Shown here: positions 23,521-29,334 of the stretch, piece by piece | How the letters are laid out: every line of letters starts with the position of its first letter | Position numbering within the stretch: the stretch's first letter is position 1 | Assembly (NCBI GenBank): GCA_947561715.1 | Contig: OX387199.1 | Span: 18,791,001 to 18,855,000, forward strand | Direction of reading: 5' to 3' | Length of the DNA: 64,000 bases | Origin: Ascidia mentula | Lineage: Eukaryota > Chordata > Ascidiacea > Phlebobranchia > Ascidiidae | Position numbers and translations under genes: made by a program | The notes under the pieces: model-generated | The model's input: the letters and a program-made list of their open reading frames with translations, nothing else | Databases searched by the model: none | What the model was told of the DNA's origin: nothing

Positions 23521-23785
23521 TGACATTTTCTATAGAGACGGTAGTTCAAAAGAGCAAAAAGAGTGAATGCAATTTAATTGTGACTTTTAAATGTCAACGA
23601 CGATAACGTTTCATGATATATATATATATATAGCTCTTTGCAGTTTTGCAATACAACAGCTGTTTTTTGCACTAAATTTACTCTGACAATGATTAACAGT
23701 AATGCTTATTTTCAAAGAATCCTGTAGTCTCGAATAACCACAGTTTGTGAACTTGTTAAAACAACTGAATATATTTTTCAACACG

Positions 23786-25927
23786 ATGGCTTGGAAACAA
23801 GGACTCTTCGGCTGCTTCGGAAATATGGGGCTTTGCGTGTTGGCTTTCTGTGCGGCCCCACTTGCTATTGGAAAGAATGCTGAAGCCGTCGGCGAGGCGA
23901 GCTCTGTGCTGTGGGTAATCGCTGTTGAGGTCGCTCCTTGTATAGCTGGGGCCTTGCTCAGGGGGCTTGTCCGCAAGAAGAAGGTTAGTATCACAATCTT
24001 AATAGCAATTTTATTCGTAGGGACATAACAAACAAAACAAATTCAAAACAAACAGTAAAGCCCATCTAACTACTTACAATCGAAACGTCTGAGAAATAAA
24101 TTTCTTCAGTTTGTTACATGGACTTTACTTTTTTTTTGTAAATTTAATTCGTTATCGTGAGAGGTGTTCGGTCGCTTCGCAACGTGGCTAGAGCTAATGA
24201 CGATTGTACGTGTAACTTCACTTGCGAGTAAGTGAGGATCTGGCATGCCGAGAATCTAATATGTGTGGAATGACCTCGAAGTAGATCCGTTAAAAAAATG
24301 GCACTTTCAATTAACGAAACAAGTGCTTTGGTATTATCATTTGCTCGGTGTTATTTATTGCGTGCTGTTATTCAGAAAATACCAACATGGGGTTAATTTA
24401 TGATATAGAGGACCTTTACCAGCGAGCTGAACTTTAAAACTCATTAGGCCAAACACGGAATGTGCTCTCATCGTTTCGCGTTGTGATTTAAAAGCGTGGT
24501 TTGTGACCCTCTGCCCTTTTGTGAATCTCGCCATTATATCCGACTCTCAAGGGGAAAGTTGTGACGCAATTAGATTAACTACGGACAACTGCATTGTTTT
24601 GCTTTAAACGGTCACAACATATTTCTGTTGCGACGGCCGTTGCCTTCCTTATATACACCCTGCTCATCCCATGGACCATGCAAACAAATTTTTTTATTAA
24701 TGACAGTCAAATTTGTAAAGTCAACGACAAAAAAGATTTTTATGAGCAAAGTGGAGTTAATAATATGATTTCTGTGAGATGCAGACAAATGGCCGCTGTT
24801 TCGACGAACAAGGTCTCATCAGTGCAGCTTTTTGTGACTTTTCTAGACGACTTTGTCGACCAAACGGCCAGGCCTCGTAGGTCGAAACAGTGGCAATCTG
24901 TATGCAGCTCACAAAATATAAAGCTATTTTAAGCAATGTAAACGCCCAAGCAAAGACTTCCACCTATATAGTCACCACAAAGTGGAAGTCTTTGCTTGGC
25001 CGTTTGGTCAGCAAAGTCGTCTTTTAGTCACACCAGCTGCACTGATGAGACCTTTTAGGTCGGAACAGTGGCCATCTGTCTGCAGCTTATACACATTTAA
25101 AGCTATTTGTATAAACGCCAATTTCGTTACAACGTTGCCAAATACAATTACATCACATCTAGTGTGCGGAAATTGTGCAGTGAAAGGTCAAAGCGAGTGA
25201 AACATGTGACACGCTGAAGTTGCACCCATCGTATTTCACTAAACGCTGAAGCAAAACCCGTGAAATGAGTTATGGGCACACGTCATTGGTCGCTCGAGCA
25301 CCGCCCCTACGTCTATGTTTAACAATAACAATATCTCAGAGCCATTGCCTTCCGCGTGGCATTCGTAATGAATGGTGACTTTGCGCCGCCTTTGCGAACA
25401 TCCCAATAAAGAAAGAGTGGTTTGATTTCTACTGTGGCTCAAAAATTTCTATCAGGGGTGACACTTAACTCAATGTTTGAGTATGTAGTAATTATTTCCC
25501 ACATTTAATTCTCATCTACCTTATAATATTTTTATTTGATCTCTACACTTTGCTAGTAATTGTATAATGTAAACATTACTGGTTAACTATAATTATTTGC
25601 CAGAAGGGCCCTGTATACAAAACAATCATTGTATTCTTATGCAATTAATTAAACTTACAATGGTTATTAAAGTAATACTGTCATTTGTCCCTACACGCTT
25701 TCCTTGGGTTTCGCTGCCTAAATATCGATTTAAAAAAAAACGCAAATGAACTGTTTTTTGTTTCAATGCTGCAGGGTATAGAGGGTTCGTTCACTACAGA
25801 TGTGTTGATCTGGTTGTGTGTGCCCTGCTGCGCCCTCTGTCAGGAAGTGGCGGAAACTGGGAGTATGGACTATCTCCAACAGCCCGAGATGCAGGCGATG
25901 CAGCGCGAGGTCACCAACACATCTTAA
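23786..25927 (+). CDS. PLAC8-family (cornifelin-like) cysteine-motif protein
   Basis: Two exons, 23786-23983 and 25775-25927, joined in phase 0, give 116 residues, the usual family length. Family landmarks are in order: an N-terminal W-x-x-G-L-F-x-C (residues 3-10), the GKNAEAVGE segment (29-37), LLRG-x-x-RKKKGIEGS across the splice (57-71), and the core CVPCCALCQE (81-90). PLAC8 proteins are small, often membrane-associated, and linked to immune and epithelial functions, metal handling and cell size; the role here is unknown. Several cysteines usual in the middle of the family are absent (CAAPLAIG, VEVAPCIAG), so metal or acyl binding may differ. The start ATG at 23786 is chosen because the frame upstream has only a GTG. 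The intron carries hammerhead repeats. Confidence 0.88.
24777..24829 (-). ncRNA. Type I hammerhead ribozyme motif, copy 1 (canonical core)
   Basis: Read on the minus strand: stem I strand AGCTGCA (24823-24829), core CTGATGA (24816-24822), a short stem II closed by GAC/GTC, core GAAA (24799-24802), short stem III CAG/TTG, cleavage triplet GTC, then TGCATCT returning to stem I with one mismatch. All conserved core bases are present. Stem II is weak (3 bp). It lies in the PLAC8 intron, antisense to PLAC8. Confidence 0.75.
24871..24910 (+). ncRNA. 3' half of a hammerhead ribozyme motif (degenerate copy)
   Basis: It contains the right arm of stem II (AGGTC), core GAAA (24884-24887), stem III CAG/CTG with loop TGGCAAT, cleavage triplet GTA, and the stem I strand TGCAGCTC. 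The CTGATGA half is missing. It marks the 5' edge of the repeat unit ending in copy 2. Confidence 0.6.
24903..25080 (+). mobile_element. Retrozyme-like repeat unit between two hammerhead cleavage sites
   Basis: The distance from the cleavage point of the half motif (after 24902) to that of copy 2 (after 25080) is 178 bases, the size of small animal retrozymes. After 25080 the sequence resumes TGCAGCT, then TAAAGCTATTT and TAAACGCC, as at the start of the unit, so a second unit begins in tandem and breaks off at about 25120. Inside is a perfect inverted repeat of AAGCAAAGACTTCCAC with GTGGAAGTCTTTGCTT. The left flank 24777-24868 is an inverted relative of 25000-25087, so the locus is partly palindromic. 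It encodes no protein. Confidence 0.65.
25035..25087 (+). ncRNA. Type I hammerhead ribozyme motif, copy 2
   Basis: Stem I AGCTGCA (25035-25041) pairs perfectly over 7 bp with TGCAGCT (25081-25087). Core CTGATGA is at 25042-25048. Stem II GACCT/AGGTC is a perfect 5-bp hairpin. The second core block reads GGAA instead of GAAA (25062-25065). Stem III is CAG/CTG with loop TGGCCAT, and the cleavage triplet is GTC ending at 25080. The A-to-G change at core position 13 probably weakens or abolishes cleavage. Confidence 0.78.
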
Positions 25928-26966: not shown

Positions 26967-29334
26967 TCAACCGCAACAGTTACGCTTGGACTCATCCACG
27001 TGCATTCCGAGGTCGGTGATGTCTGGATCGCTCTCGTGCGGTGAATAATTTTTGTCGTTGACGAGGATTTGGTTGACAAGAAACTTCGCCGCTTCGTCAA
27101 TATTCACATTCGACTTAAACAAAAGAATTTTTAAACTTTGCTAATTTCTGTTCATCTTTCTTGAGAATTAGGTATATTGGGTTGCCACAAGATGTACCAA
27201 AAAATTGAATCGAGAAATTCTTTTCGCTGAAAATATAATGAACCCCGCTAATGAATTATTTTAACACGTGTATGGCCCTAAAGGTTGTTGGAATACTGAA
27301 TTTTAAGCATGCCGGGGCGTTCCCAACCCATGTAACAAAAATATATTAAAAAGCCTATTGTCTCAAAACATACTAGCGATATCTGGATGATTTTTTTGCT
27401 ATCGGAGGGTGTTTTATTAATTCGAAGAAAATTCACCTTTGCTGAGGTTTCAAACCAAGCGGCGAATCCTTTCTCTTTGCAATATTTGTCCATTTGATCC
27501 TTGTTTCTTGTCAAGCCTTCCTTCATTTCGTCACACTTGTTGCCTAGCAACACAGCAGGAATGCTTTTGCCATCTGGAAGCATCACCTGTGCGGAAGAAC
27601 GAGACAAGTTTTGTAAATTCGCATTAAAAAATACGGCAAGAAGTTTTGTATTTATGTGTAATAAACCATTAATTTGAAGTGTGAAGTTATTTGAACAAAC
27701 GTTTAATTAAAGAGCTCAACAATTTGATTTGTAATGCAAGCATTTCTCAGGCCCATGTTTTTATATGCAAAAGCAATTGTAAATATATTTTCATAATGCA
27801 TCTTTATAATTAATACAAGAAAACTTTAGGATTATAAACCAAAAGGTTTGTAGTTGTACTGCTTTGAAACAAAGGGCTTTGAAACGCTCACGTGACCGAT
27901 CCACATGAGAAATTTAAACAGAAACAAAGCGTTTCTTATGGTGGAACATCTGACATTAGTTGGACATTCTGATGATTGTTTCTCAAAATCACTTTATAGT
28001 GTTATATGGTACTGTTTCTATCAGACATTGTATATTTATGGGGAAAACCAAAAATCCTCTTTTTTAAGAACTGTTCTTCATACTTAAAAAGTCGAGTCTA
28101 TTTTATTTTAAACGACGTTTTGTCTGCCATCCGGCGTGATTCTTCAGGGTTTTGGCGTAAGAATTCACCGTCGGGTAAAATTAAACAGAAGGACTGTTTT
28201 TTTTTCCAAATTTTATTGCATGGGTGGAATATTCTATTATACCTTGCTATCAAGGTCGTTTTTCCATTTTGCAACAGCTTCAAATGTGGAAGCTCTCGTG
28301 ACGTCAAAGACCACAAAGGCACCAACGGCTTCTCTGTAGTAAACCCGGGTCATGTTGCCAAACCGCTCCTGACCTGGGGTTAAATAAACAAAGGTCTCAA
28401 CAGTTGTATGCAGGGTTACCAAAGGTCAAACACTGACAGGTGGAAAGCTTTTGTTTTACTGCTTTCCAAGAATGGAAAGTGACGCTCCAAGTCACTGATG
28501 CATGAACTGATGTTTCGAAATTTAGTGTATTTTATAATCATGCAACAACATAAATAAATTGTGTAAGCTGCAGACAGATGGCCACTGCTTCGACCTAAAT
28601 AGTCTCATCAGTGCAGCAGACGACTTTGCTGTCTAATCACCGTCATCCGTTAGGCACCAAGCCAAAACACTATGGCTAAGCAAAGCTCAACCAATATAAA
28701 TAAAGTTATGTTTTTCAAGTTTTGTTTTTTTATTTTGTTTTGCCGTTTTGTTTTATTTATTTTAACCGCGGCAAAACGGTTAAATCACCTGCTATGTCCC
28801 ACAGTTGTAGTCGAACCAATGTGTCGTCGTTCCAATGAATGACCTTGAGAGCAAAGTCAACGCCAATGGTCGCTCGATAATGTTGGGAAAATATTTGGTG
28901 CACGTATCTCTTTATCACACTGGTCTTTCCAACGCCTAAATCTCCAATAACCAAAACCTTGAAGTGAAAAATATCGTTTGTAATTCTGTCTCAAAAATAT
29001 TCTTCGTGCAAAAACCTTATTTTAAATTTGTATTTAAAACGATAATTCCAATGACACAGTTAGGGGGTAGATAAACTTTAAAGTAACGCATTCATATACG
29101 CAAAATGTTGCAGAAAGTCTGCAATAAAAACAAAGTTCATGTCAACTTGTAAGTAAATAAACGTAACGTACAATACAAATATTAGAAATGCTGTTTATCG
29201 TGAAGCTTTATTGGCTATATTTTGACTTTTTTGCAAATGTTAGTATTTAAAAGAGGTAATTATGTTAAAAGATTTCCATTTCACATAACGTTGCAGTCGC
29301 TCACCTTAAACAGATATTCCTTTTTTTCTTCCAT
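26967..29334 (-). CDS. Rab32/38: Rab32/Rab38 small GTPase
   Basis: Minus-strand exons in order: 29305-29334, 28789-28957, 28243-28373, 27437-27586, 26967-27113, all phase-consistent, giving 208 residues. GTPase motifs: GDLGVGKT (15-22), the effector region [24 protein letters not shown] (63-73), NKCD (126-129) and ETSAK (156-160). The IGVDFALKV and [16 protein letters not shown] segments identify the Rab32/38 subfamily, which directs traffic to lysosome-related organelles such as melanosomes; in ascidians it is associated with the pigment cells of the larval sense organs. The C-terminus ends CCG, a site for geranylgeranylation. The ten-codon first exon is typical of a Rab start. Introns are short; the third carries a hammerhead copy. 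No defect is seen. Confidence 0.95.
28567..28617 (-). ncRNA. Type I hammerhead ribozyme motif, copy 3 (in a Rab32/38 intron)
   Basis: Minus-strand order: stem I GCTGCA pairing with TGCAGC (6 bp), core CTGATGA (28605-28611), stem II GACT/GGTC with one wobble, core GAAG, stem III CAG/CTG with loop TGGCCAT, cleavage triplet GTC. Only the helix-closing A of GAAA is changed, to G, which can still wobble-pair. It is on the same strand as Rab32/38, so the intron RNA would contain it. Upstream it shares AGCAAAGTCGTC with copy 2. Confidence 0.72.

What the first reader, a model, noticed from the sequence alone, without database searches (positions are those of the whole stretch)
24777..25120. Hammerhead ribozymes arranged as a retrozyme-like unit in the PLAC8 intron
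Copy 2 (25035-25087) has a perfect 7-bp stem I, CTGATGA, a 5-bp stem II, a short stem III and a GTC cleavage triplet. Copy 1 on the other strand has the full canonical core. A half motif lies 178 bases 5' of copy 2 on the same strand, and the unit restarts after copy 2. Type I hammerheads with very short stem III flanking units of a few hundred bases define the small retrozymes known in some animals; such units circularise through ribozyme cleavage. The adjacent inverted copy suggests repeated insertion. The motif is seen; activity and mobility are inferred.
Basis: partly seen in the sequence, partly recalled or inferred. Interest (0 to 1): 0.9.

Follow-up and report, generated by a model that had tools for sequence, protein, structure and literature searches.

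The report
Sea squirt retrozymes moved by Penelope
The spot holds two worn copies of a tiny jumping element that carries a self-cutting RNA, one of hundreds in a sea squirt genome, and the way these copies are inserted points to the enzyme of another mobile element, Penelope, as the thing that moves them.

Summary
The hammerhead motifs are real and belong to a large retrozyme-like family. A hammerhead pattern occurs 1,118 times in it, against 0 for the reversed control. The true unit is 283-286 bp in head-to-tail arrays, not 178 bp. The window holds two adjacent insertions in a PLAC8 intron: an old one (24742-24918) and a younger one (24930-25097); the 178-base spacing comes from their juxtaposition. 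Copy 2 reads GGAA where family copies read GAAA, so it is probably dead. Copy 1 has the core but weak stems.

The main result lies outside the window. Of 47 mapped insertions, 32 are head-to-head two-armed, and 29 of those 32 end at site A (median 15 nt past the predicted cut) on one side and site B (median 44) on the other, with AT-rich duplications of mostly 12-13 bp. A Penelope-like element (PLE) family of the same genome shows the same layout, and the two-site "tail" is a published PLE hallmark. This supports PLE machinery as the mover of animal retrozymes, argued in the papers I saw from shared hammerheads, tandem copies and co-occurrence. Cleavage, circular RNA and mobility are inferred.

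The parts
24742..24870 (-). Insertion 1 (old), inverted arm: unit positions 202 through the hammerhead to 45; outer end at site B
   Evidence: Local alignment to a real array unit, 108 of 132 columns identical
24777..24829 (-). Hammerhead copy 1: CTGATGA and GAAA core present, stem I 6 of 7 bp, stem II 3 bp, stem III CAG/TTG
   Evidence: Sequence read directly; weak sub-threshold RAGATH-1 hammerhead match, 19.2 bits
24870..24918 (+).
   Evidence: 46 of 57 columns identical, unit 254 to about 24
24732..24743 (.). Possible decayed left target duplication of insertion 1 (AAAGATTTTTAT); partner AAAGCTATTTGTAT at 25100-25113
   Evidence: Read by eye; imperfect, with a 2-base gap; inference
24919..24929 (.). 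Left target duplication of insertion 2, TAAAGCTATTT
   Evidence: Exact 11-bp repeat of 25098-25108
24930..24963 (-). Insertion 2 (young), inverted arm: TAAGCAATGT (site B end, unit about 44-35, read by eye) joined to unit 210-187; with 24982-25005 it makes a 24-nt, 96% complementary hairpin
24964..25095 (+). Insertion 2, direct arm: unit 169 through the hammerhead to 15, ending at site A
   Evidence: 127 of 132 columns identical to a real array unit
25035..25087 (+). Hammerhead copy 2: full stems, CTGATGA, cleavage triplet GTC at 25078-25080, but GGAA for GAAA at 25062-25065
   Evidence: GGAA variant 5 genome matches versus 1,533 GAAA
25098..25108 (.). Right target duplication of insertion 2, TAAAGCTATTT
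23738..24028 (+). Open frame holding the upstream PLAC8 exon
   Evidence: PF04749 positions 1-73, E = 1.6e-07
25676..25927 (+). Open frame holding the downstream PLAC8 exon; the insertions lie in the inferred intron between
   Evidence: PF04749 positions 75-101, E = 8.4e-05

Best explanation
The window carries two dead or dying copies of an animal (non-LTR) retrozyme: a retroelement with a unit of about 284 nt, no long open frame and one type I hammerhead per unit. In this genome, which matches the ascidian Ascidia mentula, the family is moved by Penelope-type machinery. Proposed cycle: tandem copies are transcribed, the hammerhead cuts the RNA to unit length (inferred), and host ligase closes circles (inferred from published animal retrozymes). 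A PLE-type enzyme cuts an AT-rich target with a stagger of about 12-13 bp (shown by the duplications). The two target ends prime reverse transcription on the RNA at two fixed sites about 30 nt apart, just 3' of the ribozyme (end positions shown; priming inferred). The two cDNA arms are joined head to head (structure shown). Long arms give the tandem units. In the window, an old insertion was later followed by a young one at its right flank, re-using the same target stretch.
For: Repeat family: 135 and 80 matches with 40 of 2,060 and 40 of 1,409 candidate places scored. 1,118 hammerhead pattern matches versus 0 reversed. Unit 283-286 bp in real arrays. In 47 insertions, 32 are two-armed and 29 of 32 have one A end and one B end (medians 15 and 44 over insertions with a duplication of 10 bp or more); 14 of 15 single-armed end at A and 1 at B. 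Duplications of 10 bp or more in 37 of 47 by script (36 if the palindromic case L033 is removed) versus 104 of 2,162 mismatched flank pairs; 81% AT. Copies in one insertion differ by 1.1 sites on average (26 pairs) versus 5.3 between insertions (1,249 pairs), 0 of 2,000 label shuffles as low. 121 GIY-YIG matches, open frames up to 892 aa (150 of 382 candidates scored); one such frame has RT and GIY-YIG domains. That PLE family shows head-to-head arms with one end at 327-336 and the other at 367-371 of the query in 6 of 6 two-armed places (two of them, L085 and L094, are alike through their flanks, so perhaps 5 events), and a 12-bp duplication in the one array checked. Published PLE hallmarks match: two RT start sites equal to a 30-40 bp tail, AT-rich targets, cutting and extension of both strands; inverted pLTRs with a 31-bp tail on one of them. 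Sites A and B lie on a predicted stem-loop, z = -1.99, 5 of 200 shuffles as good.
Against: No RNA data: cleavage, circles and transcription are not shown. No PLE locus held here shares sequence with the retrozyme end, so the partner PLE is not identified (30 GIY-YIG loci held of 121 matches). An uncleaved multimer could serve as template instead of a circle; the Anolis PLE works on unprocessed RNA in vitro, and there the RT start sites did not differ between the two target strands, unlike the A/B pairing here. In 5 of 11 multi-copy insertions some copy elsewhere is identical to a member, so the single-template argument is soft. 3 of 32 two-armed insertions break the A/B rule. Stem covariation is not convincing. 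The minimum-energy fold of the intact motif is not the hammerhead. The stem-loop is not better than shuffled sequence in the second family (z = 0.56 and 0.12), and the corresponding PLE stretch has z = -0.91.
Confidence: 0.82

Rival explanations
1. The repeats are solo fragments (pLTR-like ends) of an autonomous PLE family that itself carries this hammerhead, not a separate retrozyme.
For: Insertion structure is PLE-like. Some PLE loci here carry minimal hammerhead-like motifs (10 of the 30 GIY-YIG loci by my stem scan). Two PLE loci (L068, L075) have a decayed stretch like this hammerhead about 500 bases past the GIY-YIG match.
Against: Head-to-tail arrays of 283-286 bp without a long open frame. 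The hammerhead has a 3-bp stem III with a 7-nt loop, unlike the minimal PLE type. L068 and L075 are alike through their flanks, and the related PLE copy L071 stops matching before that stretch, so it looks like a separate piece.
Confidence: 0.1
2. A LINE-type (R2/L1-like) enzyme moves the family, and the inverted arms are ordinary twin priming.
For: 5' truncation, target duplications, 5' inversion.
Against: Two-armed forms dominate (32 of 47) and pair site A with site B in 29 of 32; both ends are internal to the repeated unit; [quoted passage not shown] LINE insertions of this genome were not examined.
Confidence: 0.07
3. A satellite or inverted-repeat DNA element (MITE-like) that happens to hold hammerhead-like sequence.
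For: Short repeats without a long frame, with inverted arms and direct flanking repeats.
Against: Arm lengths and inner junctions vary between insertions, duplications vary from 10 to 16 bp, and the outer ends are the fixed part: the pattern of reverse transcription, not of a transposase.
Confidence: 0.02
4. Template is an uncleaved multimeric transcript; the ribozyme and circles play no part in mobility.
For: The Anolis PLE inserts from unprocessed RNA, and ribozyme mutants do not matter in vitro.
Against: Units within an insertion are near-identical; 5 of 14 single-armed A-ended insertions stop after about one lap (read; chance about 3e-4 under a uniform model chosen after seeing the data). 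An RNA starting near that site would look the same.
Confidence: 0.35

Closest known systems
Metazoan non-LTR retrozymes (Cervera and de la Pena 2020, PMC7229834; abstract, results parts 1-2 of 3 and discussion read)
   Same: Type I hammerhead, tandem units in the 150-450 bp range, GC below 50% (47.4% here), target duplications longer than 4 bp, co-existing PLEs.
   Different: New sequence family; the find terms tunicat, urochordat, ascidia and ciona gave 0 hits in that main text. The two-site, two-armed insertion structure is not mentioned in the parts I read; results part 3 and supplements were not read.
Penelope-like elements: Poseidon of Anolis (PMC11167929, abstract and main text read, methods and supplements not) and Penelopes of Adineta vaga (PMC3846280, passages seen)
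   Same: Two internal RT start sites or tail of about 30-40 bp, head-to-head inverted terminal copies, target duplication, AT-rich target, hammerhead near the end.
   Different: The present unit has no frame that could hold RT or endonuclease and is ten times shorter than the PLE unit of 2,870 bp seen here.
Hammerheads reported in a tunicate: 9 type I loci in Didemnum vexillum (PMC8704543, passages seen)
   Same: Type I hammerheads in an ascidian genome.
   Different: Reported as counts of model matches; no element, unit or insertion structure in the passages seen.

Membership tests
Metazoan non-LTR retrozyme | Type I hammerhead with canonical core in each unit | tested here: met
   Family copies: CTGATGA, GACCT/AGGTC, GAAA, CAG/CTG, GTC, AGCTGCA/TGCAGCT; full-length RF00163 match, but below cut-off; catalytic activity untested
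Metazoan non-LTR retrozyme | Same, for the window copies themselves | tested here: not met
   Copy 2 has GGAA; copy 1 has 3-bp stem II
Metazoan non-LTR retrozyme | Head-to-tail units of about 150-450 bp | tested here: met
   283-286 bp units; one array lists 6 same-strand hammerheads at C1:3332752-3334219
Metazoan non-LTR retrozyme | Non-coding | tested here: met
   No stop-free run above 94 codons over two real units in six frames
Metazoan non-LTR retrozyme | Target duplications longer than 4 bp | tested here: met
   10-16 bp in 37 of 47 by script, 36 without L033
Metazoan non-LTR retrozyme | Self-cleavage and linear plus circular unit-length RNA | not testable with these tools
   No RNA data and no assay
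PLE-type insertion | Two end sites separated by a tail of about 30-40 nt | tested here: met
   Median ends 15 and 44; PLE family of the same genome 327-336 and 367-371
PLE-type insertion | Head-to-head inverted terminal copies, tail on one side only | tested here: met
   29 of 32 two-armed insertions
PLE-type insertion | Endonuclease-bearing PLE in the genome | tested here: met
   121 GIY-YIG matches, open frames up to 892 aa; RT plus GIY-YIG in one frame; array units 99.9-100% identical where compared; activity not tested
Autonomous PLE | Telomerase-like RT and GIY-YIG endonuclease frame | tested here: not met
   No frame in the unit long enough
Plant LTR retrozyme | LTRs with type III hammerheads, 4-bp duplications | tested here: not met
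   Type I layout and 10-16 bp duplications; LTR signals not searched for

The most novel reading that the evidence does not exclude
Each two-armed insertion is the product of one circular RNA reverse-transcribed at the same time from both sides of a staggered break, primed at two fixed sites 30 nt apart beside the ribozyme and run round the circle in both arms: bipolar rolling-circle target-primed reverse transcription, shared by retrozymes and PLEs.
Probability: 0.4. Interest if true: 0.75.

Novelty: new member of a known kind. Interest (0 to 1): 0.55.

Why it matters
How animal retrozymes are inserted is an open question in the papers seen: PLEs were proposed because both carry hammerheads, occur in tandem and co-exist. 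Here the insertions themselves bear the two-site end signature that is reported as peculiar to PLEs, in a genome with near-identical PLE array units showing the same layout. That makes the hypothesis directly testable by comparing insertion ends in other retrozyme-bearing animals, and it gives a large natural set of young insertions for studying PLE priming and head-to-head joining. The window copies themselves are ordinary, decayed insertions.

Tried and rejected
Rejected: a 178-nt unit (two insertions). A functional inverted pair of ribozymes in the window (copies belong to different insertions; copy 2 core changed). A microRNA hairpin at 24940-25005 (sub-threshold matches to mir-5879 and others; the hairpin is the head-to-head arm junction). 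Covariation as proof of function (3 T-A versus 35 C-A and 31 T-G with 1,533 C-G). A PLE partner identified by shared end sequence (none among 30 GIY-YIG loci; the hits in L068, L075, L086 and L096 look like separate retrozyme pieces). An Rfam scan as a test (intact copies also fall below the cut-off; rang in no control). Viral contigs: 0 exact matches to one 30-base hammerhead. Two-armed cases that break the rule: L033 (by eye site A on both sides, with an exact 64-base inverted repeat of the flank), L047 (B plus position 270, no duplication found) and L051 (B plus position 267, target overlaps the element by about 7 bases).

Row choice: the 47 insertions come from 66 repeat loci (60 fetched by similarity to the window or to one array, 6 by coordinate); 19 loci lying on an insertion already used were dropped by coordinate, so the set leans to young copies. 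For the 10 insertions with a best flank repeat under 10 bp, ends are alignment ends. L001 (the window) counts once there although I read it as two insertions. In one search only copies covering unit 60-240 were used (51 copies, 34 insertions). In one search, L077 and L078 are one place, and L085 and L094 may be one duplicated insertion.

Full report
The observation. The window sequence at 24777-25120 does contain two hammerhead-like motifs and a half motif. Copy 2 (25035-25087, +) has a 7-bp stem I, CTGATGA, a 5-bp stem II, a 3-bp stem III and the GTC triplet as described, but its second core segment reads GGAA. Copy 1 (24829-24777, -) has both core segments and weaker stems. Rfam finds nothing at gathering level in the window, but an intact genomic copy scores only 20.8 bits against RF00163 with a cut-off of 34 while matching the whole model, so that test cannot decide. 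The minimum-energy fold of the intact motif is not the hammerhead; energy rules for single strands do not model its core, so I give this little weight.

Genome copies decide. A search of the genome with the window stretch gave 135 matches with 40 of 2,060 candidate places scored. A search with another part of the repeat gave 80 matches with 40 of 1,409 scored, 79 of 80 at 97-100% identity. A loose hammerhead pattern occurs 1,118 times and 0 times in the reversed control. A tighter core pattern with GAAA occurs 1,533 times, with GGAA 5 times including the window. The repeat unit is 283-286 bp, head to tail, with six same-strand hammerheads listed in one array. The unit has 47.4% GC and no long open frame. 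A second, distantly related family with spacing of about 290-295 bp is present, and a piece of a further divergent copy lies in L086.

The organism. COX1 lies on contig C79 (19,461 bases). Read with the ascidian code one frame is open, and AGA/AGG fall where I recall conserved glycines (GGFGNW); other codes were not tried. Contig lengths (27.92, 19.88, 23.17, 22.72, 22.34, 21.17 Mb) and the mitochondrial length agree with the Ascidia mentula assembly kaAscMent1.1 (27.92, 19.88, 23.17, 22.72, 22.35, 21.17 Mb; 19.46 kb). The held genome has 195.8 Mb in 79 contigs, the published one 197.0 Mb in 95 scaffolds, so a few small pieces differ. This is identification by assembly statistics, not by a sequence search.

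Anatomy of the window. Aligned to a real array unit, with position 1 the base after the predicted cut, the stretch resolves into two insertions. Insertion 1 (about 82% identical) has an inverted arm 24742-24870 ending at unit 45 and a direct arm 24870 to about 24918 ending near unit 15-24. Insertion 2 has the exact duplication TAAAGCTATTT (24919-24929 and 25098-25108), an inverted arm beginning with unit 44 (read by eye) and a direct arm 24964-25095 ending at unit 15, 127 of 132 identical. Both lie between two PLAC8 exons, copy 2 in the sense of the gene.

How insertions look elsewhere. I mapped 47 insertions. Target duplications of 10-16 bp were found in 37 by script (one of these, L033, is a palindromic flank rather than a duplication), versus 104 of 2,162 mismatched flank pairs; they are 81% AT. 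Thirty-two insertions are two-armed, arms pointing away from a variable inner junction. In 29 of 32 one outer end lies at site A (8-25, median 15) and the other at site B (36-55, median 44). Of 15 single-armed insertions 14 end at A and 1 at B. Three two-armed cases differ and are listed under rejected items. Both sites lie 3' of the predicted cut, so an arm that reaches from there into the ribozyme was copied from RNA unbroken at the cut site: a circle or an uncleaved multimer. Unit copies within one insertion differ by 1.1 sites on average against 5.3 between insertions, 0 of 2,000 shuffles as low, which fits one template per insertion, although in 5 of 11 multi-copy insertions an identical copy exists elsewhere.

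The PLE link. The genome holds many GIY-YIG matches (121, with 150 of 382 candidates scored) in frames up to 892 aa; one such frame has an RT domain before the GIY-YIG domain. A stem scan finds minimal hammerhead-like motifs in 10 of the 30 GIY-YIG loci held (no shuffled control was run). One array on C67 has 2,870-bp spacing, 99.9-100% identity where compared, a head-to-head layout, a 12-bp duplication and arm ends 44 bases apart. Across the loci of that family, 6 of 6 two-armed places have one end at 327-336 and one at 367-371 of the query (perhaps 5 events); duplications were checked only for the C67 array. Published work describes this for PLEs: reverse transcription starts at two internal sites that define the 30-40 bp tail, both target strands are cut and extended, AT-rich targets are favoured; and inverted pLTRs carry a 31-bp tail on one of them with a 9-bp duplication. 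In the Anolis assay the start sites did not differ between target strands, so the strict A/B pairing seen here is not explained by that work. In the retrozyme the tail is about 29 nt and both sites lie on one predicted stem-loop (z = -1.99). A short motif TTAT..GGCT..TTGC is found in the same place in the second family, but the stem-loop there is no better than shuffled sequence, and in the GIY-YIG loci held the motif occurs only in the retrozyme piece of L096.

Mechanism and its limits. Shown: family, unit, duplications, two arms, paired end sites, same layout in a PLE family. Inferred: transcription, self-cleavage, ligation to circles, priming by both target ends, joining of the arms. The circle is plausible (published animal retrozymes make circles) but an uncleaved multimer is a live rival, since the Anolis PLE uses unprocessed RNA in vitro.

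Novelty. A search of the held library for retrozyme, hammerhead and Ciona together gave 0 papers. Retrozyme with Penelope gave 14, of which I saw parts of three (PMC7229834, PMC7761336, PMC11722881). In those parts PLEs are proposed as movers from shared hammerheads, tandem copies and co-occurrence. Two wider searches held 839 and 217 papers, of which 20 each were listed. Type I hammerheads were already counted in another ascidian (9 loci in Didemnum vexillum). I did not find the two-site insertion signature described for retrozymes in what I read; supplements and papers outside the library were not seen. The element is a new family of a known kind, with new evidence on how the kind moves.

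Noticed in passing
G000:C67:6132528-6148416 (L079-L083, L097): Array of five PLE units (three in one direction, two in the other), 99.9-100% identical where compared, 2,870-bp spacing, flanked by AGAATCAATAAT: a very young multi-unit PLE insertion.
   Followed up: partly
L033 (C67:9118900-9120100): Retrozyme insertion with site A at both ends and an exact 64-base inverted repeat of the flanking host DNA: an aberrant fold-back insertion or an assembly effect.
   Followed up: partly
L004, positions 1305 and 1460: A host flank of about 60 bases is duplicated together with a retrozyme piece.
   Followed up: no
G000, e.g. C52:9186361/9186654 and C67:6002367/6002662/6002955: Second retrozyme family with units of about 293 bp and a longer stem III, also with inverted neighbours.
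   Followed up: partly
L013, L017, L028, L029, L064: Five single-armed insertions stop about one full lap after site A (L017 with an internal deletion), as if the polymerase met its own start on a circle.
   Followed up: partly
window 28757-28990 (-): Exon of a Ras-type small GTPase (PF08477, PF00071) near the PLAC8 gene.
   Followed up: no
window 24940-25005: Arm junction hairpin scores as a microRNA precursor below threshold (mir-5879, 33 bits against 97); such junctions could mislead microRNA annotation.
   Followed up: yes
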